Part shown: positions 33,470 through 51,901 of the stretch, in pieces | How positions within the stretch are numbered: position 1 is the first letter of the stretch | Layout: each line of letters opens with the position of its first letter | Assembly (NCBI RefSeq): GCF_004323735.1 | Contig: NZ_CP036455.1 | Coordinates: 4,335,101 to 4,399,100, forward strand | Length of the DNA: 64,000 bases | From: Streptomonospora litoralis | GTDB taxonomy: Bacteria > Actinomycetota > Actinomycetes > Streptosporangiales > Streptosporangiaceae | Direction: 5' to 3' | Notes under the pieces: model-generated | What the model saw: only the letters and a program-made list of their open reading frames with translations | Told to the model about the DNA's origin: nothing | Database searches by the model: none | Program-made: the position numbers and the translations under genes

Positions 33470-34402
33470 TCAGCGCCGCTTCTCCTCCCGACTGCCCGCG
33501 ACCCGGCAGGCGGCACCGCTACCGGGAGGCGCGTCCGTTTCCCGTTCCCCGCCATCCGGACGGCGCCCCAGCACCGTGTAGAAGACGGGCGAACAGGCGC
33601 GGAAACCGGGGTGGTCCAGGAGCCGGCGTACCGCCGCGAGTTCGTCGGCGGCCATGCCCGCGCGCAGCAGCGCCCCGGCCAGATGCCGGGTGTGGTGGGC
33701 CTGCAGCCTCACCCCGGGTGAGCCCGACCGCCACACCGCCACCTTCGGGACCGGATCCACCTCGCCGAATCCCGCCCGGCGCATCGCCTCCGCCGCACGG
33801 CGCCCCCACGCCGGATCGGCGCCGGCGGCCTCCAGTGCGCGGAACTTGGCGCGCTGGAACCGTGCGTACAGTGCGGCCGCCGCCTCGTCCGGCACCACCA
33901 GGGCGGGAGCGTGGGTGGCGTCGAGTTCGTCCAGTTGCAGCCACCCCCCCGGACGCAGCGCACGCAGCAGCCGGGCGAGCACCGCGTCGCGCTCGGGCAG
34001 GTGCATCAGCACCAGCCGGGCGTGGACGAGGTCGAAGGCGGCCTCGGGCAGCGGGTCGCGCACGATGTCGTGCGCCAGCACCTCGATGCCCGCGGCCCCC
34101 GCAATCCGATCCGGCTTGATGTCGGTGGCCACCACCTCCCCGCCCGGCGCGACGCGGTGCGCCAGCCACGTGGCGACGCTCCCCTCCCCCGCGCCGACTT
34201 CCAGACACTGCCAGCCCGCGCCCACACCCGTCGCGGCCAGGCGCGCCGTGGTGAAGGGGTCGTAGGCCGCGGCCAGGCAACCGTGCTGCTCGCGGGCGTG
34301 CCGACTGTCGTTGTCGAAGACGTATCCGCGACGGGTGCCCAGCCCGGCATCCGCCGACCCGCTCGCGGGCACCCGCACGGCCTCGCCACCGCCCCCGGTC
34401 AC
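33470..34402 (-). CDS. Class I SAM-dependent methyltransferase
   Basis: A 310-residue methyltransferase, last gene of the minus-strand biosynthetic operon. The SAM motif I is LEVGAGEGSVATWLA near residue 68, followed by VVATDIK (motif II acidic strand), the motif before FDLVHARLVLMHLPE, and LRPGGWLQLDELD (post-motif). The C-terminal part (VRLQAHHTRHLAGALL and on) resembles small-molecule methyltransferases of secondary metabolism. GTG 34402 shares GTGA with the AMP-ligase stop. It probably methylates a carboxyl, hydroxyl or amine of the pathway product; which one is not shown by the sequence. Confidence 0.88.
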   Translation of the reverse strand: MTGGGGEAVRVPASGSADAGLGTRRGYVFDNDSRHAREQHGCLAAAYDPFTTARLAATGVGAGWQCLEVGAGEGSVATWLAHRVAPGGEVVATDIKPDRIAGAAGIEVLAHDIVRDPLPEAAFDLVHARLVLMHLPERDAVLARLLRALRPGGWLQLDELDATHAPALVVPDEAAAALYARFQRAKFRALEAAGADPAWGRRAAEAMRRAGFGEVDPVPKVAVWRSGSPGVRLQAHHTRHLAGALLRAGMAADELAAVRRLLDHPGFRACSPVFYTVLGRRPDGGERETDAPPGSGAACRVAGSREEKRR

Positions 34403-36141
34403 GATCCCTCCCGCAGCCGCGACCGCAGCGGGCCCGGCTCCGATGCGGCGGCCGCGGGCGGCGCCGACCGCTCGCCGGACTCGGCTCCCCACTCGGCCAG
34501 CGTGTGCCGGCACACCTTGCCCGTCGCGCCCAGCGGCAGCTCGGCCAGCCGCAACAGCACCTCCGGCAGCTTCGCGCGCTCCAGACCCCGCGCGTCCTCC
34601 AAGAAAGCGTGCAACGCGGCCGGGGTGAGCGGCTCCGTCCCCGGGGCCTGCACCACACACGCACAGAGCCGCTCGCCCAGGACGGGATCGGGCACACCCA
34701 CGCAGACGGCTTCGGCGACGGCGGGGTGGGCGGCGAGGTGCCCCTCGACCTCCCGCGGGCTGATGGTGTATCCGCCGCGCTTGACGACGCGCTTGAGCCG
34801 GTCGATCACCCGCAGCGCGCCGTCCTCCTCGAACCTGCCGCGGTCGCCGCTGCGCACCCAGCCCCCCTCGGCCCGGTAGCGCGCGTCGAGCTCGGGCGCG
34901 TCGACGTAGCACAGCGGGGTCATCGGCCCGCGGGCCCAGATCTCGCCCTCGCCGTCCCTGTCGCCGTCGCCGTCGCCGTCGCCGGTGCCGACGATGCGGA
35001 TGTCGGCGACAGCCGGGTCCGGCCGCCCGGTGACACCGCCGGGCCGCGCGGACGCGCCGAGGGGCGTGTGGCAGTTCATCCCGTCCGCCGAGCCGTACAC
35101 GTTGAGCACCGGTCGGCCGAACCGGCGGTGCGCGGCGTCGATGACGTCGGCCTCCAGCACCGCGGAACTAGTCACCACCGCCCGGAGCGACGACGTGTCC
35201 TCGCCGACCGCGCCGGGGTGCGCCGCCAGCCGCCGCAGTAGGGTCGGCACCGCGAACAGGTGGGTCGGCCGGTGCTCGGACACCGCGCGCAGTACCGCCG
35301 CGGGGTCGACGCCGTCCAGGACCAGCAGCGTTCCGCCGAGACCCGCCAGCGTCACCGGCGTGCCCAGCGAGCCGTAGGAGGACGCCAGGGGCACCAGGAC
35401 CAGGTTGCGCATCGGCATCGTCCCGTCGTGCAGCGCGGCGACGTAGTTCGCGCGTCCGCCCGCGAAGGCGTTGTGCGAGTAGGCGATCATCTTCGGCTCG
35501 GACTCCGATCCCGAGGTCACCAGGATGCGGGCGGGCGACTCGGGCGGCACCCGCCGCGGCGGCCACTCCCGCCTGTCGGCGTGTTCCGCGCCGGCGGCCG
35601 CATCCAGCGCCGCGGTGGCGGTTGCGGGCGCCCGGTCGTCGCCGAAGGAGAACACCGCCGCCAGGTGCGGCAGTTCCGGGCGCAGGCGAGCGAGTTCGGC
35701 GAGGGGGTGGGTGCGGCCGGTCGGGTCGCCCGCGATGACCGCGACGGCACGCGAGCGCCGCAGCAGGGCGGCGATGCCGGCGCGCCCGCGCATGGCGGGA
35801 TAGGGGAGCGAGACCGCGCCGACGGCGGCGATCGCCAACTCGGCGGCGACCGCCCGCCATCCGTTGGGCAGCTGGACGGCGACGATGTCTCGGGGACCGA
35901 TCCCGGAATCGGCCAGCGCGGCGGCGATGCGGCGCACGCGTGTGTCCAGGGCGGCGTAGTCGAGCGTGCCTTCGCCGTCGACGACGGCGTCGCGGCGGGG
36001 ATGATCGCGCACCCGCCCGCGGAACAGCGTGTACAGGTCGGTGTCGGGGCAGTGTCCGTGCTCGACCCAGGTGCGGCGCAGCTCCGCGGGGACGAGGTCG
36101 GCCAGCACGATCCCGTTGTTGGAGGTCCAGGCGGTTGTCAC
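34399..36141 (-). CDS. AMP-dependent acyl-CoA synthetase/ligase
   Basis: A 580-residue ANL-superfamily adenylating enzyme that activates a carboxylate as acyl-AMP. The P-loop-like motif is VTSGSESEPKMIAYSHN (usual form TSGTTGxPK), a divergence that may matter. A5-type LNVYGSADG, the hinge region GGWVRSGDRGRF with RLKRVVKRGGYTISP, and the C-terminal catalytic Lys in LPLGATGKVCRHTL are present. A (Gly-Asp)n insert near 410, encoded by a GCCGTC-type repeat at about 34961-34985, is odd. GTG 36141 shares GTGA with the CoA-transferase stop. No carrier protein is nearby, so a CoA ester or amide ligation is likelier than NRPS loading. Confidence 0.88.
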   Translation of the reverse strand: MTTAWTSNNGIVLADLVPAELRRTWVEHGHCPDTDLYTLFRGRVRDHPRRDAVVDGEGTLDYAALDTRVRRIAAALADSGIGPRDIVAVQLPNGWRAVAAELAIAAVGAVSLPYPAMRGRAGIAALLRRSRAVAVIAGDPTGRTHPLAELARLRPELPHLAAVFSFGDDRAPATATAALDAAAGAEHADRREWPPRRVPPESPARILVTSGSESEPKMIAYSHNAFAGGRANYVAALHDGTMPMRNLVLVPLASSYGSLGTPVTLAGLGGTLLVLDGVDPAAVLRAVSEHRPTHLFAVPTLLRRLAAHPGAVGEDTSSLRAVVTSSAVLEADVIDAAHRRFGRPVLNVYGSADGMNCHTPLGASARPGGVTGRPDPAVADIRIVGTGDGDGDGDRDGEGEIWARGPMTPLCYVDAPELDARYRAEGGWVRSGDRGRFEEDGALRVIDRLKRVVKRGGYTISPREVEGHLAAHPAVAEAVCVGVPDPVLGERLCACVVQAPGTEPLTPAALHAFLEDARGLERAKLPEVLLRLAELPLGATGKVCRHTLAEWGAESGERSAPPAAAASEPGPLRSRLREGS

Positions 36142-38045
36142 GAGGTGAACTCCCACGGTGAGCGGACGAACGCGGCGCCGCCGGTGTCCAGCGCGCCGGC
36201 GATTCGGGGGTCGGCGGCGAGGTCCGCCAGGTCGGTGCAGACGGGAGTGGCGCTCAGCCCCGCACCGCGCAGCCGCTCGGCCACGTCTGCGGCCCTGTCG
36301 CCGCGGCACAGCCGGGCCACCGCGGCCGCGGCATCGGCGGCGGGGCGGTCGGCGCCCAGCGCACGGGCTACGCGGTCGGGCGAGCTGCGGGCGTGCGGGC
36401 CCAATGCCAGGTACCCGTCACCCGTGCGGAGCGGCGGATGCAGCGGACCCCATCTCGGGCGGCGGGCTCCGCCGGACGGTGCCGCCGCGGTCAGCAGCGC
36501 GGCGCCGTCGTAGAGGGCGGAGTCGACGCGGATGCCGCCCGCGCCCCGGCAGCGCGCCAGCAGCCCGGCCAGCACGCCCTGCGCGCTGAGCAGCCCGCCC
36601 AGCACGTCGGTCAGCGTCATCAGCGACGGCGCGGGCTCTTCGCCGCGGGGGCGCACGAGCCCGCCGAGGCCGCTGTGCGCCTGCACGAGGAAGTCGGTCC
36701 CCAGCGGCTCGGCCCCGCCCATCGCCGCGCCCGCCTGCCGGGCATCGCCCCAACCGGAGGCGTGCGCGTATACGAGTCCGGGCCGGACGGCGAACAGGTC
36801 GGCGGAGTCCAGCCCGAAAACGGCGGCCTTGCCGGGGGCCCAGTTGTGCAGGAAGACGTCGGCGCCCGCGGTGAGCTCGCGGACTTGCCGACGCCCCTCC
36901 GGCGTTTTCAGGTCGGCCTCGACGACGTGCTTGCCGCGGTTGAGCGCGAGGAAGCGGGCCGAGCAGGTGCCGACCGTGGGCGGCACCCAGCGGAGCGGGT
37001 CGCCGCCGGGCGGTTCGATGCGCAGTACCTCGGCGCCGAGCAGCCGCAGCAGGTGCCCGGCCAGCGGGCCCTGGACCCGCCGGGTGGACTCCACCACGAC
37101 CAGTCCGTCCAGCGGAAGGCCGGCGCCGGGGCGGCACGGCGCCGGCGGCGGTCCCGGCGTATCCGAAGAGCCGCCGGTGAGCCGCCAGGGCGGCGGTTCC
37201 GCGGCGTCGGAGCGGCGGCGCTCCCCGGCCGCGCCGTGCACCCGCACGATGCTGATGCCGGCGGCCTGCGCCGCACCGGCCGCCTCCCGGAAGACGCGTG
37301 CGGCGGCGGTGGCGTGCAGCTCGGGCGGCAGCGGGCAGACCGCCGCCGCGTAGCGGTGCTGGAAGGGCTGCCACCCGCGGGCGAGCGCCGCGCGGTCGGC
37401 GCCCAGCAGCGACCAGAACCGCTCCCACCGCTCGGCCTCGAACGTCTCGATCTCGAAGGGCACACCGTCGGCCGAGGTGAACGGCGGTCCCCCGGGGGCG
37501 GCCGGGGCGTCCCGTTCGTCGCCCGAGGCGGTCGCCGCGGCGAGGTACTGTCCCACGCTGATGAGCGCCGCCTGGGCGACCGAGGTGCGCACGAGCTCCG
37601 CCGCGCCGCCGCGCAGCCGCCCGATCAGCGCGGCCAGCAGGCCCTGGGCGGACAGGACGCCGCCGACCGCGGACGCGTAGTCGATCGCGAGCGGCCGCGG
37701 GCCCCCGGAAGAGCGCCCGTGCACGTGCATGAGGCCGCACGCCGCCTGCACCCCGGGCTCGTCCTCCAGCGGCAGCGCGAGAGGGCCCGCCCAGTCCAGC
37801 GCACACGCGACGCGGGCGTGGTCCGCGGCGAGCACGAGGGAGCCCGCCGATCCGGCCTCGGCTCGGGCGCGGGCCCGCCCGGCACCGCGAACCGCCACGT
37901 CGGGGCCCGGCGACGCGGCGCCCAGCATCCGAAGCTGCCGGATCGCGATGTCCGCGGCCGCCGAGCCCTCGGAGCCCTCGACCGCGAAGCCGTCCAGAGG
38001 TGCGCCGGCATCGGTGACCGGACTGCGGTCAGACGAGACGGTCAT
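36138..38045 (-). CDS. Long CaiB/BaiF-type (family III) CoA transferase, two-part
   Basis: A 635-residue protein, about 1.6 times the usual 400. The C-terminal part (about 315-635) is a full family III CoA-transferase: VVVESTRRVQGPLAGHLLRLLGAEVLRIEPPGGD, then FLALNRGKHVVEADLKTPEG, and the catalytic-Asp region TLTDVLGGLLSAQG. The N-terminal part repeats only the middle segment (AIDYASAVGGVLSAQGLLAALIGRLRGG, Asp kept) without the nucleotide-binding start, so it may be a degenerate second subunit; family III enzymes are interlocked dimers. ATG 38045 follows GGAAGGGA. It sits between two AMP ligases and probably moves CoA onto the pathway acid. Confidence 0.85.
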   Translation of the reverse strand: MTVSSDRSPVTDAGAPLDGFAVEGSEGSAAADIAIRQLRMLGAASPGPDVAVRGAGRARARAEAGSAGSLVLAADHARVACALDWAGPLALPLEDEPGVQAACGLMHVHGRSSGGPRPLAIDYASAVGGVLSAQGLLAALIGRLRGGAAELVRTSVAQAALISVGQYLAAATASGDERDAPAAPGGPPFTSADGVPFEIETFEAERWERFWSLLGADRAALARGWQPFQHRYAAAVCPLPPELHATAAARVFREAAGAAQAAGISIVRVHGAAGERRRSDAAEPPPWRLTGGSSDTPGPPPAPCRPGAGLPLDGLVVVESTRRVQGPLAGHLLRLLGAEVLRIEPPGGDPLRWVPPTVGTCSARFLALNRGKHVVEADLKTPEGRRQVRELTAGADVFLHNWAPGKAAVFGLDSADLFAVRPGLVYAHASGWGDARQAGAAMGGAEPLGTDFLVQAHSGLGGLVRPRGEEPAPSLMTLTDVLGGLLSAQGVLAGLLARCRGAGGIRVDSALYDGAALLTAAAPSGGARRPRWGPLHPPLRTGDGYLALGPHARSSPDRVARALGADRPAADAAAAVARLCRGDRAADVAERLRGAGLSATPVCTDLADLAADPRIAGALDTGGAAFVRSPWEFTS

Positions 38046-38722: not shown

Positions 38723-40348
38723 TCACCGCCCGGCCGAGGTGGGAGGAGCGGGGCGGGGGCGGGCTACCGGGTGGGCGCCGCCGAGGAGGCGGGAGCGGAG
38801 TTCGAGGCGGCGGACTTTGCCGGTTCCGGTGCGCGGAAGGTCGTCTGCGGCCATGACCAGGGGCTCGGCCAGTTCCGGGAGGTCGGCGGTGGCACGTCGC
38901 CAGGCCGCCGGATCGAGACTGCCGCTCTCCGTGACGACCACGGGGACAGGCGGGCCTTCCCGGGGGCGCAGGACGACGCACTCGACGACCTCCCCAACGC
39001 GGTCGTCGACGACGTCTTCGACCTCGACGCAGCTCATACCGGCCACGGCGTCGACCTCGCGGTCCAGAACGTGCACCGATCCCCCGCGGGTGCGCATGCC
39101 GACGTCCTCGGTGTTCCACCACCTGCCCAGTTGCTTCGCCGACCAGCGTTCGGACTCGCCCACATACCCCAGCCCCAGGGCCTTGGTGCGGGCCAGGACG
39201 AGCCCCGGCCGACCGCGCCGCAGCGGGCGCAGGGTGGCGGGGTCGGCCACCCGCAGCCGGGTGCGGCCCGGTACCGGGCGGCCCAGGTCGCGGGTGGTGG
39301 GGCGGCGCTCGCCGACGGCGGCCACCGACTTGCGGGTGAGCAGGCGGAAGGCCAGCGGACCGGTCTCACTCTGTCCCCAGCCCTGCAGCCACACCGGTCG
39401 GCGGCGCTCGCTCGCCGCCAGGAACGTGCGCACAGCGGGCGGGTGCACGGCGTCGAACGTGCTGATGTAGAGCCGGACGCGCGCGAACACGTTCTCTGCG
39501 GCCGGTGCGGCGGCCAGGTGGCGCCAGCGTACGTAGGTGGCCGGCAGCGCCTCCAGCGTCGTGGGCGGGTGGGCGCGCAGGAAGGGCTCGGCGGCCTGGG
39601 GACTGTGGTCCGCTATGGCGGCCACCGCGGCGGGACGGAGCCAGAACACGCTTGCGGTCCAGGCGAACGCCCGCCCGTGGGCGAAGGAGGTCGCCGCCGC
39701 GACGGTGTCGCCGGGGCGGCTGCTGAGCACCGGCCAGCGGCGCGCCTCGAATCCGATCAGGCGGCGCACGATGGTGGCCGTGGAGTGGACGACCAGTTTC
39801 GGGGTGCCGGTGGTTCCGGAGGTGTGCACGATGATCAGCGGCTCGTCCGCGCCGCGGCGCCGCGGCGCGGGCGCCGGGTGGCCCCGCACGTCGGCCGCCG
39901 GCACCGCATCCGGCAGGTTTTCGCCCGTGCCGTCGAGGAGCAGCCGACGCCTCGCGGGCAGCCCGATCCGGGCGGCGGCCGCCCGCTGGGCGGTGGCGCC
40001 GTCGAGTACCAGCAGTGCCGCATCCAGCCGCGCCAGCAGGGTGGCCAGGGTGGCCGGGGGCAGTTGGGCGGAGACGGGTGCCGGGACGGCGCCGATCCGC
40101 ACCGCCGACATGGCCAGCAGCACGATGTCCCAGTGGTTGCGCTTGACCAGCGCCACACGGTCGCCGGGGCCGGCTCCCGCGGCGGCCAGGCGTGCGGACC
40201 AGTCCTCGACCAGCGCGGCGAGGTCGAGGACGTTGCGGGGGCCCGCATCGTCGGGGGCGATGTCGAGGGGGCGGCTGAGGTGCAGCACAGTGGGGCTGTG
40301 CCGTTCGGCGAGGGTGTCGAACAGTGTCGCGATGTCAAGCCGCTTCAT
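38723..40348 (-). CDS. AMP-dependent acyl/aryl-CoA ligase
   Basis: A 541-residue ANL-superfamily ligase. The adenylation motif is canonical, IVHTSGTTGTPKLVVHS near residue 180. LQGWGQSETGP (A5-type), the hinge motif with DREVDAVAGM replacing the usual DRxK, and a C-terminal catalytic Lys in RTGTGKVRRLEL complete the fold. ATG 40348 lies 14 nt inside the FAD-oxidoreductase 3' end with GAAGGA upstream, so translation is coupled. It differs strongly from the other ligase of the operon and probably activates a different acid, or performs an amide-forming step. Confidence 0.88.
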   Translation of the reverse strand: MKRLDIATLFDTLAERHSPTVLHLSRPLDIAPDDAGPRNVLDLAALVEDWSARLAAAGAGPGDRVALVKRNHWDIVLLAMSAVRIGAVPAPVSAQLPPATLATLLARLDAALLVLDGATAQRAAAARIGLPARRRLLLDGTGENLPDAVPAADVRGHPAPAPRRRGADEPLIIVHTSGTTGTPKLVVHSTATIVRRLIGFEARRWPVLSSRPGDTVAAATSFAHGRAFAWTASVFWLRPAAVAAIADHSPQAAEPFLRAHPPTTLEALPATYVRWRHLAAAPAAENVFARVRLYISTFDAVHPPAVRTFLAASERRRPVWLQGWGQSETGPLAFRLLTRKSVAAVGERRPTTRDLGRPVPGRTRLRVADPATLRPLRRGRPGLVLARTKALGLGYVGESERWSAKQLGRWWNTEDVGMRTRGGSVHVLDREVDAVAGMSCVEVEDVVDDRVGEVVECVVLRPREGPPVPVVVTESGSLDPAAWRRATADLPELAEPLVMAADDLPRTGTGKVRRLELRSRLLGGAHPVARPRPAPPTSAGR

Positions 40349-41708: not shown

Positions 41709-41863
41709 GCGGACCCGCCGAGGGCGGGCTCGGCGGGTCCGCCCGACGGGGGTGCCGCGTCGGCGGGCCCTGAGGGGACGTTCGCGCGAACGGCGGTCTC
41801 GCGCGGCGCGCCGGCGACCGGGCCACGCGGCGGCCGAGGGGCCTGGGGCTGCGGTCGGGGCAT
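41705..41863 (-). CDS. 52-codon frame coupled between UbiA and FAD oxidoreductase genes
   Basis: ATG 41863 overlaps the UbiA stop as TGATG, and the frame's own stop overlaps the FAD-oxidoreductase start as GTGA, so a ribosome could pass through all three. The product is Pro/Ala/Gly-rich (start MPRPQPQAPRPPRGP, end GGPAEPALGGSA) with no hydrophobic core. It may be only a translation relay, a small disordered protein, or chance in GC-rich DNA. Confidence 0.35.
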   Translation of the reverse strand: MPRPQPQAPRPPRGPVAGAPRETAVRANVPSGPADAAPPSGGPAEPALGGSA

Positions 41864-42861: not shown

Positions 42862-42893
42862 CGGAGGTGCTCCTCGGTTGGTCGGCGGCCCGG

Positions 42894-44027: not shown

Positions 44028-45268
44028 GCCGGCTTCCTTCCGGTGTAGAAGCGGCCGATGAGCGCGCAGACCCGGTGGATCTCCGCCGGGGTGAGGTCGG
44101 GGTGCAGCGGGAGCGCGAGCGCGCGGGCGCAGGCGGCCTCGGCGTTGGGGAAGTCGCCGGGGCCGTGGCCGAGGTCGGCGAAGCAGGGCTGCAGGTGCAG
44201 CGGCCGGGGGTAGTAGACCTCGGTGCCCACGCCGTGCCGGGCGAGGTGGTCGGCGAGGGCGTCGCGGTCTTCGAACTCCGCGAGGTAGACGTAGTGCACG
44301 GGCTCGGTCGCCGCGGAGCGCGGGGCGACGGCGGGCAGACGGACGACGCCGGGCATGTCGTGCAGCAGCTCGGTGTAGGCGGCGGCCAGTTCGGCGCGGC
44401 GGCGGATGGCGGTGTCCAGGTGCGCGAGCTTGGCCAGCAGCACGGCCGCCTGCAGGTCGTCCATCTTGCTGTTGAGGCCGGGCAGGCTGGTGGGGGCGGC
44501 GATGCCCGGAAAGTGGTCGAGGGTGTGGCCGCGCCGCCCGTGGTGACGCAGGGCGGCAGCGGTACGGGCGAGGTCGGGGTCGTCGGTGAGGACCGCGCCT
44601 GCGTCGCCGATCGCCCCCAGCGTCTTGGCCGGGAAGAACGAGAGGACGCCGCCTGCGCCGAGCAGACCGGCGTGTGTTCCGTTCCACCGCATGCCGATGG
44701 CCTCGGCGCTGTCCTCGACGAGAGTGAGCCCGCGGCTCTCGGCGAGGGCGCCCAGCGCGTCCATTTCGGCCATCTGGCAGAACAGGTGGACGGGCATCAG
44801 TGCGCGGGTGCGGGCGGTGACGGCAGCGGCGGCCGAGGCGGGGTCCACGGCGTAGGTGTCGGGCTCGATGTCGGCGAAAACGGGGCGGCCCCGCGCCAGC
44901 ACGACCGCCGAAGCCGAGGCGACGAAGCTGAAGGCGGGTACCACCACTTCGTCGCCCGGTTGCAGTCCGGCGGCGCGCAGGAGCAGCACGAGCGCGTCGG
45001 TGCCGGAGTTGACCCCGACGACGTGCCGAGCGCCGGTCCACGCGGCGAGCGCGGATTCCAACTCGGCCACTTTGCGGCCGTGGGAGTACTTGCCGTGGTC
45101 GAGCACCTCGCAGCAGTGGGCGCGGATGTCGGGCCACAGGCGCGCGAAGGTGTCGCGCTGGCTGAAGAACGGGATCGGCGCGGGATCGGGGTCGCGGATA
45201 CCGGCCGGGCGCCGGGGGCGGCCGGCGAGCGGAACGGGCGTGGCACAGGCGGGAAAGGGGGAGTCCAT
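44024..45268 (-). CDS. DegT/DnrJ/EryC1/StrS aminotransferase (first of pair)
   Basis: A 414-residue PLP enzyme that would transaminate a keto-sugar or keto-cyclitol. Motifs: VGVNSGTDALVLLLRAAGLQPGDEVVVPAFSF, PVFADIEPDTY, LVEDSAEAIGM and the Schiff-base Lys in FFPAKTLGAIGDAGAVLT. YYPRPLHLQPCF is the VioA-type C-terminal substrate loop. A 30-residue Pro/Arg-rich N-terminal extension precedes the domain, so a later start is possible; ATG 45268 has only the weak site AAGGGTGA. First gene of the minus operon and divergent from a Gfo/Idh dehydrogenase, which could supply its keto substrate. Confidence 0.92.
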   Translation of the reverse strand: MDSPFPACATPVPLAGRPRRPAGIRDPDPAPIPFFSQRDTFARLWPDIRAHCCEVLDHGKYSHGRKVAELESALAAWTGARHVVGVNSGTDALVLLLRAAGLQPGDEVVVPAFSFVASASAVVLARGRPVFADIEPDTYAVDPASAAAAVTARTRALMPVHLFCQMAEMDALGALAESRGLTLVEDSAEAIGMRWNGTHAGLLGAGGVLSFFPAKTLGAIGDAGAVLTDDPDLARTAAALRHHGRRGHTLDHFPGIAAPTSLPGLNSKMDDLQAAVLLAKLAHLDTAIRRRAELAAAYTELLHDMPGVVRLPAVAPRSAATEPVHYVYLAEFEDRDALADHLARHGVGTEVYYPRPLHLQPCFADLGHGPGDFPNAEAACARALALPLHPDLTPAEIHRVCALIGRFYTGRKPA

Positions 45269-45743
45269 GATTCACCCTTGCGCTGAGAAGGAGGGCCGGC
45301 GGAATCGACACGAGCGGGCGGGTTTTCTCGGTCATCGGATTTCCGGAGCGACGGCGGTTATTCCCGCCTCGGCGCGAGCGCTAAACGAGAAACCGGGAAA
45401 CCATGCCGAGAAACGCGGCACGACCACTCTTGGAACGGCTCAATTCGCCCCATTCCCGCGCGGCATCGACAGAAGCCGCTGTTCACCACACACCCGAACA
45501 AGCCAGGAAGCAATTGCGCGACGGCAATCGCGTGTCGCCATCCCCCGACGGAAAACGACTGTTGACAATCGCACCATCCCGGCGTGAACCTGGATCCGTT
45601 CGCGGCACAGCCCCGTACGGACCACTTTTCCGGAAAGGCGGATGCCACCGGTGGCGCCACGCGGAGACCGTCCTTTTTCTCATCGATGCGCTCGTGGATC
45701 CGCGCCGACCGAAAACAGAATGCAGAGAGGTGACGGATCCGCC
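45269..45743. promoter_or_regulatory. Divergent promoter region of the two biosynthetic operons
   Basis: A 475-bp gap, AT-richer than its surroundings, between divergent operons. TTGACA at 45562-45567 is a plausible -35 for the + operon. TTTCCGGAAA (45627-45636) is a perfect 10-bp palindrome, and TTTCCGGA recurs near 45340 on the other side, so one regulator might control both operons. No regulator gene is adjacent. I see no gene here. Confidence 0.4.
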
Positions 45744-46862
45744 ATGCTGCATACGCTCGTCGTGGGTCTCGGCCGCTCCGGGCGCGGACTGCACCTGCCC
45801 GCTCTGGTGCGGGCCCGCGCGCAGGCCGGCCGGCACCGCGTCTTCTCCCCCGGCCCCGACCTCGTCTACGACCCTCGTCCACCGTCCGGGGGCCTGCTCC
45901 CGAACCCCGGCGTCCGCGCCGTCCCCTCGCTGCGAACCGCCGCCGAGGCCGCCGACCCCGCACGCACGGTCGCCCACCTGTGCACCCCGCCCGGCACGCG
46001 CGTAAAGGTCCTGGAGGAGCTGGCCCGGCTCGGCTACCGCCGCATCCTGATCGAGAAGCCACTGGCGGCGGACGAGGTCGAACTCGCCGCCGTGCTGCGG
46101 CTGCGGCGCCGGTTCGGCCTGCAGACGGCCGTAGTCGCGCAATGGCTGACCAGTGCGCTGACTCACCGGTTGCGGGCGGCGGTGCGCGAGGGCCGGCTGC
46201 ACGGACTCGGCGTCCCCGGCGCCGACGGGGCGCCGGGCACCGCTCCCCGGCTCGGCCGCCTGCGCACCCTGCGGATAGTGCAGCGCAAACCCCGCTTCGT
46301 GCGCTCACTGACCAGCCGTGCCCACCCCACCGCGTTCGACGTCGAACTCCCCCATTCCGTCGGTGTAGCCCTCACCCTGGCCGGCGGCGCCCGCGTGCGT
46401 TCAGCCTCCTGGAGCGACATGGCGCTGGGCAACGTCGAGGTTCCCCACCTGGGACAGGCCCACCTGGTGCTGGAGCACCGCACGGGCGCCCGCACCGAGA
46501 TCCTCTCCGACCTGACGGCGCCCACCCGCGAGCGACGCATCGTCTGCGAGTTCGACCGGGGCAGCCTGACCGGCCACTACCCCTGCAGCGAGGACGACGA
46601 CACCGCCCAACTACGCAGCACCACCGACGACGGCTCGGCGCACCTGGTGTTCCACGACGACGCGCTGGCCGACTTCCTCCTCGGCGCCTACGAGCACTTC
46701 GCCGGGCTGCGCGCGCTCCCGCTCGACGACGCGTTCGGGCTGCAGGTGCGCGCCGTCCGCCTGCTCTCGGCCGCCAAGGACCTCTGCGCCGGGCACACCG
46801 ACCCGGGTGCGGTCGGATCCGCTTCCGAGGAAAGGACGACCTGCCATGCCGACCTCGCCTGA
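45744..46862 (+). CDS. Gfo/Idh/MocA-type oxidoreductase
   Basis: A 372-residue NAD(P)-dependent dehydrogenase of the family that oxidises sugar or cyclitol hydroxyls. The N-terminal Rossmann motif is LVVGLGRSGRGLHLPAL, the conserved EKP motif is ILIEKPLAADEV near residue 115, and a C-terminal beta-sheet domain follows. It is more divergent than the second Gfo/Idh protein of the operon. ATG 45744 is used because the fold starts there, although the ribosome site is weak; ATG 45720 is an alternative. First gene of the + operon; overlaps the next gene by 17 bp. Confidence 0.85.
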   Translation: MLHTLVVGLGRSGRGLHLPALVRARAQAGRHRVFSPGPDLVYDPRPPSGGLLPNPGVRAVPSLRTAAEAADPARTVAHLCTPPGTRVKVLEELARLGYRRILIEKPLAADEVELAAVLRLRRRFGLQTAVVAQWLTSALTHRLRAAVREGRLHGLGVPGADGAPGTAPRLGRLRTLRIVQRKPRFVRSLTSRAHPTAFDVELPHSVGVALTLAGGARVRSASWSDMALGNVEVPHLGQAHLVLEHRTGARTEILSDLTAPTRERRIVCEFDRGSLTGHYPCSEDDDTAQLRSTTDDGSAHLVFHDDALADFLLGAYEHFAGLRALPLDDAFGLQVRAVRLLSAAKDLCAGHTDPGAVGSASEERTTCHADLA

Positions 46863-47793
46863 GGAGCCCGAGCCCGCCACCCGGCCGCCTCTTACCGCCG
46901 GCTCCGCCCCGTCCGGCCCGATCCCCGGCATCGCCTACGCGGGCATCGGCGACGAGGCCGGGCCCAGCCTCACCGAGCAACTGGCCGCCCTCGAACGGCT
47001 CGGCTGGCGGTATCTGGAGCTGCGGACCGTCGACGGCCGCGCGATAGCCGACCTCGACGACCGTGCGTTCGACGGCGCGGCCGCCACCCTCGCGGCGCGC
47101 GGCATCGGGGTGTGCTGCCTGGACTCCCGCATCGGCAACTGGGCCCGGCCCGTCACCGGCGGCTTCGAAGCCGACCGGCGCGAACTGGAGACCCTCGCCG
47201 CGCGCTGTGCCGCCCTCGGCACCCGTGCCGTCCGCATCATGACCTACCCGAACGACGGACTGGACGAGCGCGAGTGGCGCCGCCGCGTCCTCACCCGCAT
47301 CCGTGCGCTGTGCTCCATCGCCGAGAGCCGCGGGGTGGTGCTGCTGGCCGAGAACTGCGCGGGGTGGGCCGCCGAGCGCGCCGAACGGATGCTCGACCTG
47401 CTCGACACCGTCTCCAGCCCGGCCCTGGGCCTGCTGTTCGACACCGGCAACGGCATCGCCCACGGCTACCGTGCGCCGGAACTGCTCGCCGACATCGCCG
47501 CACACGTCGGCCACGTGCACGTCAAAGACGCGCGCCCCGCGTCCGACGGCGGCGAACCCGCCTACACCCTGCCGGGCGAGGGGGACGCAGGTGTGGGCGA
47601 GTGCCTGCGGCTGCTGATCGACCACGGCTACCGGGGAACCTGGTCCATCGAGCCCCATCTCGCGTTGCGCCCGCACCTGGGACAGCATGCGGGCACGGGC
47701 GGGGCGGCCGGATTCACCGCGGCCGGTGCGGCGCTGGAACGGCTCGCCGCCGAACTGCCGAACCCGCCGGTGCGCCCCGAGGGCGCCCGGTGA
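46846..47793 (+). CDS. Sugar phosphate isomerase/epimerase family TIM barrel
   Basis: A 315-residue protein with the xylose-isomerase-like TIM-barrel fold. The expected metal ligands are visible: Glu in LLAENCAG, Asp in LLFDTGNG, His in HVHVKDAR and Glu in WSIEPHLA. GIAYAGIGDE begins the first strand. Relatives isomerise or epimerise sugars and keto-cyclitols, or dehydrate (3-dehydroshikimate dehydratase type). ATG 46846 has AAAGGA upstream and overlaps the Gfo/Idh stop; its own stop shares GTGA with the peptidase gene. It likely acts on the keto product of the neighbouring dehydrogenases. Confidence 0.87.
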   Translation: MPTSPEEPEPATRPPLTAGSAPSGPIPGIAYAGIGDEAGPSLTEQLAALERLGWRYLELRTVDGRAIADLDDRAFDGAAATLAARGIGVCCLDSRIGNWARPVTGGFEADRRELETLAARCAALGTRAVRIMTYPNDGLDEREWRRRVLTRIRALCSIAESRGVVLLAENCAGWAAERAERMLDLLDTVSSPALGLLFDTGNGIAHGYRAPELLADIAAHVGHVHVKDARPASDGGEPAYTLPGEGDAGVGECLRLLIDHGYRGTWSIEPHLALRPHLGQHAGTGGAAGFTAAGAALERLAAELPNPPVRPEGAR

Positions 47794-49127
47794 GCGCCGC
47801 AGCGCTGTCCGAGGACGACCGCGACCTGCTGCTGCACCTGCTGGAGCTGCCCACCGCGGGTTTCTTGGAGACCGGAACCCTCGCGCCACCGCCCCGGCTG
47901 CGCGAGGCCCAGGACGCCTACGCCCGCGCGGCCGCACGGTCGGGCTTGGCCGTCGTCCGCCATGCGGCCCCGGAACCGGGCGAGTTGCAGCGGCCCGACG
48001 TCCCCTCGGCCGTGCGTGAAGCGGCCGCGGCCCACCCCGGCTTCCTCGCCGCCGAGCCCAGCCTGGTGCTGCGGCTCGGCCCGCCGCGGCCGCGCACACA
48101 CACCGCCATGTTCAACGTCCACCTCGACACCGTCTCGGGGTGGGAGCCCCCGCGGTTCACCGGCGAGCGTTTCCACGGCCGCGGCGCCGCCGACGCCAAA
48201 GGCCCGGCCGTCGCCCTCCTCGCCGGGGTGCGCGCTGCGCTGCGGGCCGAGCCCTCCCTCGGCACCGACACGGGCACCGGCGTGCTGATCCAGGCGGTGG
48301 CCGGCGAAGAGGGCGGAGCGATGGGGACCTTCGGCACCCGCCCACTCGTCGAGCACGGTTACGTGGGGCGGCTGAACCTGTTCTGCGAACCCACCGGCCT
48401 GCGCTACCTGCCGCGCTCCACCGCCGCCATGACGGCGCGGGTCCGCGTGACCGGGCGCGACGCCATCGACGACCGGCCGGAGCGCGGCCACAACGCCACC
48501 GTCCTACTGGGCTTCCTCGCCCAGCATCTGGCCGGCGCCCTGTCCGACGCCGCCGCGGACGCCGATCCCGCATGCGTGGCCGGACTGTGCACCGGTACCC
48601 GCCACAACCGCGTCTACGGCAGCGGCGACCTGCTGCTGAACCTCCCCTATACCGACACCGAATCCGGCCGGCGACGCGCCGCAGCGGTGGAGTCCGCCCT
48701 GGCCGACGGACTCGACGAGTTCGCCGCCCGCTTCTCGGACACCCGCGAGTACGCCCTGTCCGCCGCCGACGCCGCCCGCATCACCCGCCTGGAATGGCTG
48801 AAGCGCGGGCTCCCCGCTTTGGACTGCACCGACCCCTGGATGCACCGCCTGCTGCAGCAGGACGCGCAAGTGGCGCACCGAGGAGCCGACGAGCCCGCCT
48901 TCACCTGCGACGCCATCTGGATGCACGGCGTCCCCGGCACGAGCACGGCCGTCCTCGGACCGGGCGACCTGGCGGCGAACAACGCCCACGCCGCGGGCGA
49001 GTTCGCCGACCTGGCGGAACTGGAGTCCTTCGCCGGGGCCGTCGCCCGCATCCTGGTCGCCTTCGCGCGGGACCGGCGCGAAGGCGATCGGCCTTCGCGC
49101 GGCGCCGAGGGACGCGGGGCGGCATGA
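47790..49127 (+). CDS. M20 family metallopeptidase
   Basis: A 445-residue M20-type zinc hydrolase, relatives of which remove acyl or aminoacyl groups (ArgE/DapE/LysK-like). Visible motifs: MFNVHLDTVSGW with the metal-binding His and Asp, GRGAADAKGPAVALLAG with the bridging Asp, and AVAGEEGGAMGTF with the catalytic Glu pair. A lid/dimer domain (AAMTARVRVTG and on) and a final His-containing segment (LAANNAHAAGEF) complete the enzyme. GTG 47790 overlaps the isomerase stop. In this operon it may deprotect an amine, which is inference. Its stop overlaps the ATG of a 22-codon frame (49124-49192) that I do not support as a gene. Confidence 0.88.
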   Translation: MSAAALSEDDRDLLLHLLELPTAGFLETGTLAPPPRLREAQDAYARAAARSGLAVVRHAAPEPGELQRPDVPSAVREAAAAHPGFLAAEPSLVLRLGPPRPRTHTAMFNVHLDTVSGWEPPRFTGERFHGRGAADAKGPAVALLAGVRAALRAEPSLGTDTGTGVLIQAVAGEEGGAMGTFGTRPLVEHGYVGRLNLFCEPTGLRYLPRSTAAMTARVRVTGRDAIDDRPERGHNATVLLGFLAQHLAGALSDAAADADPACVAGLCTGTRHNRVYGSGDLLLNLPYTDTESGRRRAAAVESALADGLDEFAARFSDTREYALSAADAARITRLEWLKRGLPALDCTDPWMHRLLQQDAQVAHRGADEPAFTCDAIWMHGVPGTSTAVLGPGDLAANNAHAAGEFADLAELESFAGAVARILVAFARDRREGDRPSRGAEGRGAA

Positions 49128-49263
49128 CGTTCACGGCCGGACCACTCGGCCCCGCGCTCCCGGCCGCCGGTCAGCGGGCGCCGCCGGCGTAGCGGCGACC
49201 GCGCGGTCCGGCCCACTCCGCGCCAGACAGCCTCTTCCCCCGACCGGAAAGGCGGTTTCGACC

Positions 49264-50466
49264 GTGGTACCTCCCGACACGCCGTCTGCGGCGCGCAGTC
49301 CGCGCCCGTCCAGCGTGCCCTCGCCCCCGACAACGGCCGCTTTCCCGCCGCGCCCTTCGCGCGGCGGCCCCCGGGTGGCCGCCGACGACCTCGTCTCCTT
49401 CACCGCGCAGGTCTTCACTGCACACGGCATGCCGCCCGAACGGGCCCGGCCCGCCGCCGAGGCGCTGTGTTACGGCGATCTCACCGGCCACCCCTCCCAC
49501 GGGCTCGCCAACCTCACCCGCATCTACCTGCCCGCGCTGGCCGACGGCCGGATCGACCCCCTGGCCCAGCCGCGCACGCTCGCCGATCGCGGCGCCGCCG
49601 CCCTTGTCGACGCCCGTCGAGCGCCGGGCCTGTGGCAGGCCGGTGCCGCTGTGGACTCCGCCGTCGAACGGGCACGGACCCACGGGGTCGGCCTGGTGTC
49701 GGTGCGCGGCGCGACCCACTTCGGCTGCGCCGGGCACCACGCCGCCCGCGCCGCCGAGCACCGGATGATCGGCATCGTCGCCGCCAACTGCGGCCGCCAG
49801 CGCATCGCGCCCCCGCCCGGCGGGCGGGAGCCCCTGCTCGGCACCAACCCGCTGAGCGTCGCCGCCCCGGCTCTACCCGAGCACCCGTTCGTGCTGGACA
49901 TGAGCACCACCGCGGTGCCCACTGGCCGGGTGCGCGAAGCGGCGCGCGCCGGCCGCAGCGTCCCCGCCGGTTGGCTGGCGGACAGCGCGGGCGCGCCCGT
50001 CACCGACCCGGCGGCGTTCGACCGGGGCCAGGCCCGTCTGCTGTGGCTGGGCGCAGGCGAGGCCGCAGGCCGGGGAGGCGCATACAAGGGGTTCGGGTTG
50101 GCGCTGGCCGTGGAGGTCCTGGCGGCCCTGCTGCCCGGTGCGGGGACGGGCCCCGCCTCCGGGTGCGCCGACGACCCGGGCGCGCGCGACGACGACATCG
50201 GCTTCATCGCCGCGGCCGTCGCACCGGATGCGCTGCGCGAGGGATTCGGCGCCGACGCCCGCGCCCTGTTCTCCGCAGTGCTTTCCTGCCCGCCGACCGA
50301 CGCCGAGGCGCCGGTGCGCTACCCCGGGTGGCACGAGGCCGAGTCGGCACGGGCGCGCCGCCGCGACGGTGTCGGTGTACCGCTGCCGGCCGCGCTCCAC
50401 CGCGAACTCGCCGCGGTGGCCGACACCGCAGGAATCGCGGCGCCGCCCGTGCTCGGGGACCGGTGA
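49264..50466 (+). CDS. Malate/L-lactate dehydrogenase family (Ldh_2) oxidoreductase
   Basis: A 400-residue NAD(P)-dependent dehydrogenase of the Ldh_2 family, which reduces 2-keto acids or cyclic imines and oxidises 2-hydroxy acids. Motifs: GDLTGHPSHGLANLTRIY, VRGATHFGCAGHHAARAAEHRMIGI, LGTNPLSVAAP, FVLDMSTTAVPTGRV and GGAYKGFGLALAVEVLAALL. The first 40 residues are Pro/Ser-rich and may indicate a later start; GTG 49264 is preceded by GGAAAGG. The 136-bp gap before it is the only real gap in the operon and shows no promoter I can recognise. Substrate unknown. Confidence 0.87.
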   Translation: MVPPDTPSAARSPRPSSVPSPPTTAAFPPRPSRGGPRVAADDLVSFTAQVFTAHGMPPERARPAAEALCYGDLTGHPSHGLANLTRIYLPALADGRIDPLAQPRTLADRGAAALVDARRAPGLWQAGAAVDSAVERARTHGVGLVSVRGATHFGCAGHHAARAAEHRMIGIVAANCGRQRIAPPPGGREPLLGTNPLSVAAPALPEHPFVLDMSTTAVPTGRVREAARAGRSVPAGWLADSAGAPVTDPAAFDRGQARLLWLGAGEAAGRGGAYKGFGLALAVEVLAALLPGAGTGPASGCADDPGARDDDIGFIAAAVAPDALREGFGADARALFSAVLSCPPTDAEAPVRYPGWHEAESARARRRDGVGVPLPAALHRELAAVADTAGIAAPPVLGDR

Positions 50467-51443
50467 TGGCCGATTCCCCGCTGCGCATCGGCGTGATCGG
50501 TCTGGGCGCCATCTCCCGGTTCTACCTGGCCGCCGTGGAACGCTCGCCGTCACTGGTCCTGGCGGCCGTGTGCGACCCCCGTCCCGAGGCGCTCGCTCCG
50601 CTGCGGGGCCGCGCCCGCTGCTACCACGACCATCGGAAGCTGCTCGCGGACGGCGGTGTGGACGCCGCGGTCGTGGCCGCACCCAACCACCTGCACGCCT
50701 CGCTGTGCCGCGACGTGCTGGAGGCCGGGCTCGCGGTTTGCGTGGAGAAACCGCTGGCCACGCTGGCCGCCGACGGCGCGGCACTGCGCACCGCGGCCAC
50801 GCGGCGCGGCGCGACCCTGTTCACCGCCTTCCACCGCCGCTACAACAGGTCGGTGCGGGCGCTGGTCGACCGGATGGCCGCAGGAGCACCCCCGGTCGCG
50901 GCGCGGGTGCGCTACCTGGAACGCATCGAGGAGCACATCGGTGGCGACGCCTGGTATCTGGACCCGCAGCGCTGCGGCGGGGGCTGCGTCGCCGACAACG
51001 GTCCCAACGCCTTCGACCTGCTCCGAACGCTGCTGGGCGGACTGTCGGTGGCCGATGCGCGCATCACCCGGGACGCGGCAGGCGTAGATCGGCAGGCGCG
51101 GATCGGACTGCGGTCGGAGGGCGGAGCACAGGCGACGGTGGAGCTGGACTGGTCCTTCGCCGGCGAACGCAAGGACGTGTGGGTGCGCCTGGCCGACGGG
51201 AGTACGGAAACCGCCGACATGCTCGGCGGTTTCGGCGGCTTCAAGGAGTCGCTGTGGCACGAGTACGCGGGCGTGCTGGCGGACTTCGAGCGGCGGGTAC
51301 GGGGCGGTGACACCGCGGACGACGGCGGCAGGGCCGCGCTGGAACTGGTGGACGCGGCCTACCGCGCCGAGCGGGGGGCCACAGCCGCCGACAGTCCCCT
51401 GGCGTGCGGTGCCAGGCGGGATGCGGAGAGGAGGAGCCGGTGA
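50466..51443 (+). CDS. Gfo/Idh/MocA family oxidoreductase
   Basis: A 325-residue canonical Gfo/Idh/MocA protein. The Rossmann motif is IGVIGLGAISRFYLAAV, the catalytic-Lys motif VCVEKPLATLAADG is near residue 93, and the C-terminal domain includes DPQRCGGGCVADNGPNAFDLLRTLLGG with the conserved active-site Asp and His-type loop. ATG 50466 overlaps the stop of the dehydrogenase gene (TGATG). As the second member of this family in the operon, it likely oxidises or reduces a different hydroxyl/keto position of the same sugar- or cyclitol-like intermediate. Confidence 0.9.
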   Translation: MADSPLRIGVIGLGAISRFYLAAVERSPSLVLAAVCDPRPEALAPLRGRARCYHDHRKLLADGGVDAAVVAAPNHLHASLCRDVLEAGLAVCVEKPLATLAADGAALRTAATRRGATLFTAFHRRYNRSVRALVDRMAAGAPPVAARVRYLERIEEHIGGDAWYLDPQRCGGGCVADNGPNAFDLLRTLLGGLSVADARITRDAAGVDRQARIGLRSEGGAQATVELDWSFAGERKDVWVRLADGSTETADMLGGFGGFKESLWHEYAGVLADFERRVRGGDTADDGGRAALELVDAAYRAERGATAADSPLACGARRDAERRSR

Positions 51444-51901
51444 TCGGTGAGGACGGACCCAAGCGGGTGACGACGGCGGCGCTGGTCAAGGTGCTGGTAC
51501 ATCGCCGCGAAGAGCGCGGGATGGAGTTGCTGCCGTACGCGAGCCGCTGTGTGCGCACGGGAGAGGTGCACGAACTGGTCGCCACCGACCACACCGCGAC
51601 CGAGCCCGGGGCGCGGATCGACAGGGTGGCGTTTCTCGGGTTCGCGGAGATCGGTTGCGCGGGGGTGGTCGACCGCGGGGACGAACTGCGGGTGAACGGA
51701 CGGCCGGTCGGCACCGTGCTCGGGTTCGACGGCTGCCACTTTCCCAACCACTACAACATCCTGGTGCACACGCGGAATCCGCTCACGGGCGCGGAACTGG
51801 GCCTGCGCCCCGAGGACCGGATCGAGTTCGCGGCAGTGCACGGGGACACCGGTCGGCCGATCGCGTCGGCGCCCGAGGGACGCGGAGGAGGTGTCCGGTG
51901 A
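51440..51901 (+). CDS. Small uncharacterised protein, conserved-looking (possibly DUF6917)
   Basis: A 153-residue acidic-basic mixed protein ending the + operon. It opens KRVTTAALVKVLVHRREERGMELLPYASRCVRTGEVHELV and has a central GFDGCHFPNHYNILVHTRNPLTGAELGL segment whose His/Asn/Cys residues look like an active or metal site. The beta-rich pattern suggests a small barrel. I believe it matches a domain of unknown function (DUF6917, from memory, unverified). GTG 51440 shares GTGA with the Gfo/Idh stop and has GAGGAG upstream, so it is firmly part of the operon. A 24-codon frame starts in its TGATG stop but is unsupported. Confidence 0.75.
   Translation: MIGEDGPKRVTTAALVKVLVHRREERGMELLPYASRCVRTGEVHELVATDHTATEPGARIDRVAFLGFAEIGCAGVVDRGDELRVNGRPVGTVLGFDGCHFPNHYNILVHTRNPLTGAELGLRPEDRIEFAAVHGDTGRPIASAPEGRGGGVR

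What the first reader, a model, noticed from the sequence alone, without database searches (positions are those of the whole stretch)
33470..51901. Divergent PKS/NRPS-free gene cluster combining aminosugar-type, prenyl and acyl-activating enzymes
Fourteen recognisable genes, nearly all overlapping or a few bases apart, form two divergent operons. Two Gfo/Idh dehydrogenases, a TIM-barrel isomerase, two DegT aminotransferases and an M20 hydrolase are what an amino-sugar/aminocyclitol pathway would need. UbiA, an FAD oxidase, two different AMP ligases, a CoA transferase and a methyltransferase suggest a prenylated, activated acid. I do not recognise a described pathway with this combination. Gene families are established knowledge; the joint pathway is inference.
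Basis: partly seen in the sequence, partly recalled or inferred. Interest (0 to 1): 0.85.

Follow-up and report, generated by a model that had tools for sequence, protein, structure and literature searches.

The report
Widespread prenyl-aminosugar pathway, product unknown
A block of about sixteen neighbouring genes, kept together in many soil bacteria, looks like one assembly line that reworks an amino sugar and then attaches a terpene tail to it, and the product has not been identified.

Summary
In detail: all fourteen gene families are present at the stated places, and they form one conserved pathway. A scan with the last protein (DUF6917) found 180 relatives; in the 80 returned, the sugar-side genes recur in the same order (71 of 80 exact). 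UbiA is in 19 of 19 genomes re-checked, on the same contig in 16. In four other genera the two divergent operons are one collinear run.

Best reading: the sugar module makes the acceptor that UbiA prenylates. Sister clusters pair related UbiAs and prenyl-donor genes with a 3-hydroxyanthranilate set instead of the sugar module; in five genomes the sugar module lies against donor genes, once fused to DXS. No glycosyltransferase or cyclase was seen among members or recurrent neighbours. An aromatic acceptor is inference. Four open-paper searches aimed at the cluster found nothing; MIBiG/antiSMASH could not be run. New variant of UbiA meroterpenoid clusters.

The parts
32892..33227 (+). small secreted protein of unknown family (F0)
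   Evidence: tblastn E 1e-8 to a family found in 41 of 96 region sets, some genomes counted twice; signal-peptide-like start by eye; no Pfam match
33470..34378 (-). SAM methyltransferase (MT)
   Evidence: Methyltransf_11 3.2e-15; in 22 of 22 full-context regions, weaker (40-43%) in three
34399..36156 (-). AMP-forming acyl ligase with C-terminal domain (AMPL1)
   Evidence: AMP-binding 5.9e-56, AMP-binding_C 3.4e-13; 17 of 22 regions
36138..38045 (-). class III CoA-transferase, two stretches (CoAT)
   Evidence: CoA_transf_3 4.3e-67, best stretch 312-614; 17 of 22 regions
38723..40348 (-). AMP ligase of the ANL type (AMPL2)
   Evidence: AMP-binding 5.8e-45; P.T..GKVRR motif conserved in 23 rows; 22 of 22 regions
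40335..41708 (-). FAD enzyme of the amine oxidase/protoporphyrinogen oxidase type
   Evidence: Amino_oxidase 1.2e-47; nearest PDB by sequence protoporphyrinogen oxidase 1sez, E 1.1e-12; 22 of 22
41863..42861 (-). UbiA-family membrane prenyltransferase
   Evidence: UbiA 1.8e-10; DDxTGxRDGSD and NTxDxxGD....RxTVA conserved in 61 rows; tree
42894..44027 (-). DegT/DnrJ/EryC1 PLP aminotransferase (DegT_B)
   Evidence: 7.2e-92; best PDB 2oga, then WbpE; lysine conserved in 72 rows
44024..45268 (-). DegT/DnrJ/EryC1 PLP aminotransferase (DegT_A)
   Evidence: 9e-110; best PDB 2oga, 7b0d, WbpE; lysine conserved in 71 rows
45744..46862 (+). divergent Gfo/Idh/MocA-type dehydrogenase (Gfo1; frame open from 45642)
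   Evidence: GFO_IDH_MocA 5.8e-4, under cut-off; EKP motif conserved in 62 rows
46846..47793 (+). xylose-isomerase-like TIM barrel
   Evidence: AP_endonuc_2 6.1e-33; E169, D199, H225, E269 invariant in 32 rows; model pLDDT 90.4, best Foldseek match AsbF 3-dehydroshikimate dehydratase 5.9e-13, epimerases close behind
47790..49127 (+). M20 metallo-hydrolase (deacylase type)
   Evidence: Peptidase_M20 6.5e-15; ArgE/DapE-like, below cut-offs; metal-ligand motifs conserved in 76 rows
49375..50466 (+). Ldh_2-family dehydrogenase (frame open from 49264)
50463..51443 (+). Gfo/Idh/MocA dehydrogenase (Gfo2)
   Evidence: 3e-23 and C-terminal domain 1.9e-12; EKP conserved in 80 rows
51440..51901 (+). DUF6917 protein
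   Evidence: PF21891 9.9e-55; model pLDDT 89.5, all beta, no PDB or viral fold match at E<=0.001
52297..52812 (-). EF-hand calcium-binding protein
   Evidence: EF-hand_7 2.6e-23; inside the cluster between DUF6917 and DegT_A in four other genera; 19 of 22 regions

Best explanation
The region encodes one biosynthetic pathway to a prenylated, sugar-derived amine. A nucleotide-sugar 6-dehydrogenase, elsewhere in this genome, would oxidise a UDP-N-acetylhexosamine to the uronic acid. The Gfo/Idh enzymes oxidise ring hydroxyls to ketones, the TIM barrel dehydrates or isomerises the keto-sugar, the two DegT enzymes aminate it, M20 removes an N-acyl group, and the Ldh_2 enzyme and DUF6917 complete an acceptor bearing amine and carboxylate groups. 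UbiA then prenylates this acceptor at the membrane, the FAD enzyme oxidises it, MT methylates it and AMPL2 activates its carboxylate; CoAT and AMPL1 are optional tailoring. SHOWN here: conserved gene set and order, conserved catalytic motifs, co-occurrence, and sister clusters in which a 3-hydroxyanthranilate set stands beside related UbiA and donor genes where others have the sugar module. INFERRED: every reaction, their order, the UDP-GlcNAc start, and that the acceptor is a (hetero)aromatic amino acid (my guess within this reading about 0.5).
For: Conservation: 80 DUF6917 loci hold Gfo2 80, LDH2 78, M20 77, DegT_A 77, DegT_B 76, TIM 73, Gfo1 72, EF 66 within the held flank, the five genes upstream of DUF6917 in exact order in 71 of 80. 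Joint working: UbiA in 19 of 19 genomes re-checked, 16 on the same contig; collinear in four other genera. Module exchange: G086 and G009 carry UbiA, IspH, GGPPS, DXS, IspG and DAHP synthase/DhbA-like SDR/isochorismatase/ADIC-type synthase, the set that PMC5958127 assigns to 3-hydroxyanthranilate (abstract and passages), with no sugar module; G120 shows the first two of the four at its edge. In L113, L126 and G090 the sugar module lies between GGPPS and DXS, and in G020 (cut off) before DXS. On a Streptomyces plasmid DUF6917 is fused to DXS, and DegT-DegT-MT-UbiA-AMP ligase-sugar dehydrogenase lie about 23 kb away. UbiAs of three sugar clusters and of the sister clusters share a supported 10-row clade (97/99). 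A UbiA-family enzyme that prenylates an aromatic N-heterocycle is known: Mpz10 (PMC4044012, passages). A cluster-linked sugar dehydrogenase (L099) scores higher with UDP-ManNAc and UDP-GlcNAc dehydrogenase models than with UDP-glucose ones; DegTs match 2oga and WbpE, and the WbpA/WbpB/WbpE steps on UDP-GlcNAc are established (PMC10622841, passages). No glycosyltransferase was seen among the members or the eleven families found in five or more region sets (some of these named by eye).
Against: No reaction is tested. In 3 of 19 genomes (G551, G552, G545) the UbiA block is on another contig than DUF6917; in G551 it has FAD, AMPL2, MT, CoAT, AMPL1 and the sugar dehydrogenase but no sugar module in the 54 kb read. 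Module exchange rests on three sister regions, two of them complete. The window's UbiA and most sugar-cluster UbiAs lie outside the shared clade, and the root is not fixed: outgroup branches are 8-10 long and one outgroup falls inside the ingroup. Donor genes lie against the sugar module in only five genomes; the window has none. The sugar dehydrogenase is not in 11 of 22 regions and in this genome sits among what look, by eye, like cell-surface sugar genes. Gfo1 is below the Pfam cut-off. The TIM fold search separates dehydratases from epimerases by about one order of magnitude, and TIM is absent from its place in L080 and L121. Divergent DUF6917 occurs without UbiA in G106 and G129.
Confidence: 0.52

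Rival explanations
1. Two-half product: the sugar module makes a diamino-uronic acid or similar amino sugar, while UbiA, FAD, AMPL2 and MT make a prenylated acid from an acid of primary metabolism; an AMP ligase joins them as an amide. This is.
For: Two AMP ligases and a CoA-transferase; DegT enzymes nearest to sugar aminotransferases; the UbiA block and the sugar block are about 23-24 kb apart on the NBC_00490 plasmid and in G090, and on different contigs in G551, G552 and G545.
Against: No conserved gene supplies an acid for UbiA: DAHP synthase and isochorismatase of the sister type were found in none of the sugar-cluster stretches searched, the ADIC-synthase type only at 30-33% in seven stretches of Nocardiopsis and Glycomyces regions (one genome twice), the SDR only at 33-36% in five stretches. 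The sister clusters do carry such a supply and lack the sugar module.
Confidence: 0.27
2. Prenyl-sugar lipid: UbiA transfers a prenyl or polyprenyl group directly to a non-aromatic amino-sugar head group, giving an envelope glycolipid, with an MMPL protein as exporter (the UbiA-family DPPR synthase of mycobacteria, recalled, is a precedent).
For: MMPL genes lie near the cluster in the window, G030, G147, G090, G545 and the NBC_00490 plasmid; all 6 genomes held for the genus have UbiA and DUF6917.
Against: MMPL similar to the window's was found in 6 of 110 sequences searched, many with only 10-kb flanks; sister UbiAs sit with an aromatic-acid supply; patchy distribution (14 of 150 family genomes) does not fit a general envelope lipid.
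Confidence: 0.15
3. Sugar-catabolism operon next to an unrelated terpenoid cluster.
For: Gfo/Idh, TIM barrel, M20 and Ldh_2 enzymes are common in catabolic operons (general knowledge); the blocks are on different contigs in three genomes.
Against: Co-occurrence: 12 genomes hold both, of 16 with UbiA and 14 with DUF6917; collinear run in four genera; DUF6917-DXS fusion; no transporter among the members.
Confidence: 0.03

Closest known systems
Mpz10 and other UbiA-family aromatic prenyltransferases of secondary metabolism (PMC4044012, passages read)
   Same: Membrane UbiA protein with two Asp-rich motifs in a biosynthetic cluster
   Different: mpz has phenazine and mevalonate genes; here the proposed acceptor supply is a nucleotide-sugar module. 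Similarity of Mpz10 to the window's UbiA was not measured
3-hydroxyanthranilate-type UbiA clusters found here (G086, G009, edge of G120)
   Same: UbiA 42-48% and, in G120 and G086, AMPL2 38-40% identical; UbiAs in one supported clade with those of three sugar clusters
   Different: PhzC/DhbA-like/PhzD/PhzE genes in place of the sugar module and DegTs; no FAD, MT, M20 or DUF6917 match
UDP-ManNAc3NAcA pathway WbpA-WbpB-WbpE (PMC10622841, passages read)
   Same: 6-dehydrogenase, Gfo/Idh 3-dehydrogenase and DegT 3-aminotransferase types
   Different: No WbpD acetyltransferase or WbpI epimerase among the members; added TIM barrel, M20, Ldh_2, DUF6917, second DegT
Congocidine/pyrrolamide clusters, whose 4-acetamidopyrrole-2-carboxylate has a 'sweet origin' (title of Lautru 2012, seen in the reference list of PMC4047045; the carbohydrate route itself is recalled)
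   Same: Carbohydrate enzymes supplying an N-heteroaromatic acid
   Different: NRPS assembly; UbiA not recalled there; sequences were not compared

Membership tests
Aminocyclitol clusters | Sugar-phosphate cyclase (DOI synthase/EVS type) or inositol-phosphate synthase in the cluster | tested here: not met
   None among the 16 members by Pfam; none seen among the eleven neighbour families found in five or more region sets. The rest of the genome was not searched for one
Glycosylated natural product / NDP-sugar donor clusters | Glycosyltransferase using the NDP-sugar | tested here: not met
   None among members and none seen among the eleven recurrent families of 96 region sets (F3-F5 named by eye)
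UbiA meroterpenoid clusters | UbiA prenyltransferase with both Asp-rich motifs | tested here: met
   Pfam; motifs conserved in 61 rows
UbiA meroterpenoid clusters | Linked genes for an aromatic acceptor (shikimate, phenazine or polyketide type) | tested here: not met
   PhzC and PhzD types found only in the sister regions among 161 stretches; PhzE-like at 30-33% in seven Nocardiopsis/Glycomyces stretches
UbiA meroterpenoid clusters | Linked prenyl-donor genes | tested here: inconclusive
   Absent in the window; linked in L113, L126, G090, G020 and as the DXS fusion
Wbp-type diamino-uronic acid pathway | 6-dehydrogenase, 3-dehydrogenase and 3-aminotransferase together | tested here: inconclusive
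   Types present; 6-dehydrogenase in 11 of 22 regions, unlinked here; function not tested
Characterised cluster in MIBiG | Close match to a known cluster | not testable with these tools
   No MIBiG or antiSMASH; open-paper searches only

The most novel reading that the evidence does not exclude
Meroterpenoids whose aromatic part is made from a nucleotide sugar: UDP-N-acetylhexosamine is oxidised, aminated twice, stripped of its acyl group and dehydrated to a nitrogen heteroaromatic amino-hydroxy acid (for example an aza-analogue of 3-hydroxyanthranilate), which UbiA then prenylates. DUF6917, whose predicted fold has no match in the PDB search, would be a new enzyme of this route, possibly the cyclising or aromatising one; the TIM barrel's best structural match being the aromatising dehydratase AsbF is a weak pointer the same way.
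Probability: 0.27. Interest if true: 0.85.

Novelty: new variant of a known kind. Interest (0 to 1): 0.62.

Why it matters
In a collection of one genome per species, 180 stretches encode a DUF6917 relative; the 80 seen come from many actinomycete genera and nearly all carry this cluster, yet four open-paper searches aimed at it found no description. It would define a large orphan family of metabolites and give a role to DUF6917. If the sugar module feeds UbiA, it adds nucleotide sugars to the sources of prenyltransferase acceptors and says which genes to test.

Tried and rejected
Aminocyclitol reading: dropped for lack of a cyclase. Anthranilate as UbiA acceptor, suggested by a PhzE-like gene near Nocardiopsis/Glycomyces clusters: dropped because it was found only there and lies upstream beside a ThyX-like gene (ThyX and TrpE names by eye). 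UbiA as a terpene cyclase: considered from memory, not tested. Pyrrolostatin/nitropyrrolin papers and congocidine papers gave no linked cluster. DUF6917 fold searches in PDB and viral libraries gave nothing at E<=0.001. Outgroup UbiAs from the own genome were too distant to root the tree. The Art22 paper search did not find Art22, though it listed PMC10622841.

Rows left out before counts: one search used the window and 47 of 80 DUF6917 loci; the window and 31 of 70 TIM proteins; only complete proteins of 80-120% of the window's length; one search returned 80 of 180.
Full report
WHAT IS THERE. Fourteen genes are confirmed between 33470 and 51901, eight on the minus strand and six on the plus strand, diverging from a 373-bp gap before the longest Gfo1 frame. 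The most divergent calls are Gfo1 (N-terminal Gfo/Idh domain only, under the Pfam cut-off; EKP motif conserved in 62 aligned rows) and the CoA-transferase, which has two CoA_transf_3 stretches. The 677-bp gap between CoA-transferase and AMPL2 holds a long frame with no Pfam match. No regulator or PKS/NRPS was found in the interval.

EDGES. Two further genes travel with the cluster. The EF-hand gene at 52297-52812 lies between DUF6917 and DegT_A in G060, G088, G102 and G084, where the genes run in one direction as Gfo1-TIM-M20-LDH2-Gfo2-DUF6917-EF-DegT_A-DegT_B-UbiA-FAD-AMPL2-CoAT-AMPL1-MT. Its weak NCBIfam likeness to a named effector (53.5 bits, cut-off 120) is a general EF-hand resemblance. 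A small secreted protein at 32892-33227 has relatives in 41 of 96 region sets, and a nucleotide-sugar dehydrogenase is in 40 of 96 (at least five genomes are in the 96 twice). The L099 copy of the dehydrogenase is over the TIGR03026 cut-off and scores higher with UDP-ManNAc and UDP-GlcNAc than with UDP-glucose models, all of these under their own cut-offs. In the window's genome the best homologue (58%) is unlinked at C1:737639-738859.

HOW WIDESPREAD. All 6 genomes held for the genus have UbiA of this kind and DUF6917. The genus is Streptomonospora, inferred because contig lengths of two congeners equal those of S. alba and S. sp. PA3. In 150 genomes of the family UbiA (E<=1e-20) is in 16 and DUF6917 in 14, 12 in common; UbiA alone is in G009, G086, G120 and G143, DUF6917 alone in G106 and G129, where it is divergent (40-46%). 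DUF6917 was in 1 of 396 genomes drawn from the phylum, that one being the window's own. A scan of one genome per species gave 180 DUF6917 relatives, of which the best 80 were returned; 100 were not seen. Among the 80: Gfo2 80, LDH2 78, M20 77, DegT_A 77, DegT_B 76, TIM 73, Gfo1 72, EF 66, UbiA 62, FAD 57, AMPL2 32, CoAT 24, AMPL1 22, MT 4; the last four lie mostly beyond the 10-kb flank. Of the 18 loci without UbiA, 16 were among the 19 genomes re-checked and 19 of 19 have it; L049 and L055 (short contigs) were not. For G552 and G545 a broken assembly may be the cause; for G551 the UbiA block was read with 54 kb around it and no sugar module. TIM is missing from its place in L080 and L121. Exact order upstream of DUF6917 holds in 71 of 80; the nine others are three contig ends, four gene-calling merges, splits or misses, and the two TIM losses.

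THE CORE. In 22 regions with full context (21 genomes; G562 has two clusters) Gfo1, M20, LDH2, Gfo2, DUF6917, DegT_A, DegT_B, UbiA, FAD, AMPL2 and MT are in 22, TIM in 21; CoAT and AMPL1 in 17, EF in 19, the sugar dehydrogenase in 11 (with G088 TIM). These regions were picked because they hold UbiA or DUF6917 and because both were near each other, so those counts carry little weight by themselves. Eight further regions of the same table (G551, G090, G546, G545 and four sister regions) are not in the 22.

MODULE EXCHANGE. G086 and G009 carry UbiA and IspG-DXS-GGPPS-IspH, with class II DAHP synthase (357 bits, under its full-length cut-off), a 2,3-dihydro-2,3-dihydroxybenzoate-dehydrogenase-like SDR (359 bits, over cut-off), an isochorismatase and an anthranilate/ADIC-synthase-like protein (the four were scanned in G086). 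PMC5958127 (abstract and passages) assigns the matching set Lim3-Lim6 to 3-hydroxyanthranilate and tests two of the steps in vitro. G120 shows the first two of these genes at the end of its stretch; G559's second UbiA has the donor genes but its other side was not held. None of the four has a sugar-module match. In contrast L113, L126 and G090 carry IspH-GGPPS-[Gfo1-TIM-M20-LDH2-Gfo2-DUF6917]-DXS, and G020 DUF6917-DXS-IspG. On the plasmid NZ_CP107870.1 of Streptomyces sp. NBC_00490 the sugar module ends in a DUF6917-DXS fusion of 775 aa, with both parts matched over their Pfam lengths, and the same plasmid holds DegT-DegT-MT-UbiA-AMP ligase-sugar dehydrogenase-epimerase about 23 kb away. The UbiAs of G090, G545 (genome of L126) and G546 (genome of L113) join those of G120, G086, G009, G559 and G143 in a 10-row clade with 97/99 support that also holds two G020 copies; the window's UbiA and most others from sugar clusters lie outside it, and the root is not fixed. 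I read this as exchange of acceptor suppliers for one prenyltransferase lineage; the direction is open.

CHEMISTRY, INFERRED. Motifs suggest working enzymes: M20 metal-ligand motifs, E/D/H/E of the TIM barrel, EKP of the Gfo enzymes, DegT lysines, both UbiA Asp motifs, the AMPL2 C-terminal lysine motif (catalytic meanings recalled). Known steps on UDP-GlcNAc by WbpA, WbpB and WbpE (PMC10622841, passages) match the dehydrogenase, Gfo/Idh and DegT types. The TIM model (pLDDT 90.4) matches AsbF, a 3-dehydroshikimate dehydratase, best (E 5.9e-13), but sugar epimerases (from 1.9e-12) and IolE (5.2e-12) follow within about one order of magnitude. That the result is aromatic is not shown.

DUF6917. 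The model is all beta (pLDDT 89.5) with no PDB match at E<=0.001. Thirty-nine columns are invariant in 48 rows, among them several His, Asp, Glu, Arg and Cys, which fits an enzyme but does not prove one. One paper search for the name gave none.

LITERATURE. Ten searches of the open-access library were made. Four sought the cluster itself (27, 46, 66, 91) and found no description of it; hits were seen as listings only. Papers seen in passages are PMC4044012, PMC11331545, PMC4047045, PMC11195616, PMC10622841 and PMC5958127 (also abstract). Subscription journals and MIBiG were not covered, so 'unknown' is provisional.

Noticed in passing
window 27669-31679 (-), with response regulator 31676-32380 (-): One 1336-aa frame joins a sensor histidine kinase (HAMP, HisKA, HATPase) to an MMPL transporter domain. 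A like frame of full length is kept at 74-75% next to the cluster in two congeners (G030, G147); it was not found beside it in G107 or G128.
   Followed up: partly
L193:13802-15436, L196:1634-3310, L206:10551-12167: In the three contexts seen outside the sugar module (G106, G129, Thermomicrobium roseum plasmid) DUF6917 lies next to, or one gene from, a thiamine-diphosphate enzyme; DXS, to which it is fused or adjacent in other lineages, is also one.
   Followed up: partly
L208:5267-19842 (NZ_CP107870.1): The plasmid with the DUF6917-DXS fusion also carries what looks like a second meroterpenoid cluster: type III PKS, three aromatic prenyltransferases, a DegT aminotransferase and, further on, mevalonate genes.
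   Followed up: no
L146, L147, L148, L149 (G562, G561, G551, G559): Four of the 19 re-checked genomes hold two UbiA copies; in G562 both copies have a full cluster, of different composition.
   Followed up: partly
L039:14926-16155 (G086): An NDP-hexose 2,3-dehydratase gene lies at the edge of the 3-hydroxyanthranilate-type sister cluster.
   Followed up: no
window 53308-53991 and 54342-55052 (-): Two neighbouring GPR1/FUN34/YaaH-family membrane proteins beyond the EF-hand gene; likenesses of the first were seen beside the cluster only in congeners.
   Followed up: no
window 55482-56588 (-): MPAB/Lcp (rubber oxygenase type) protein.
   Followed up: no
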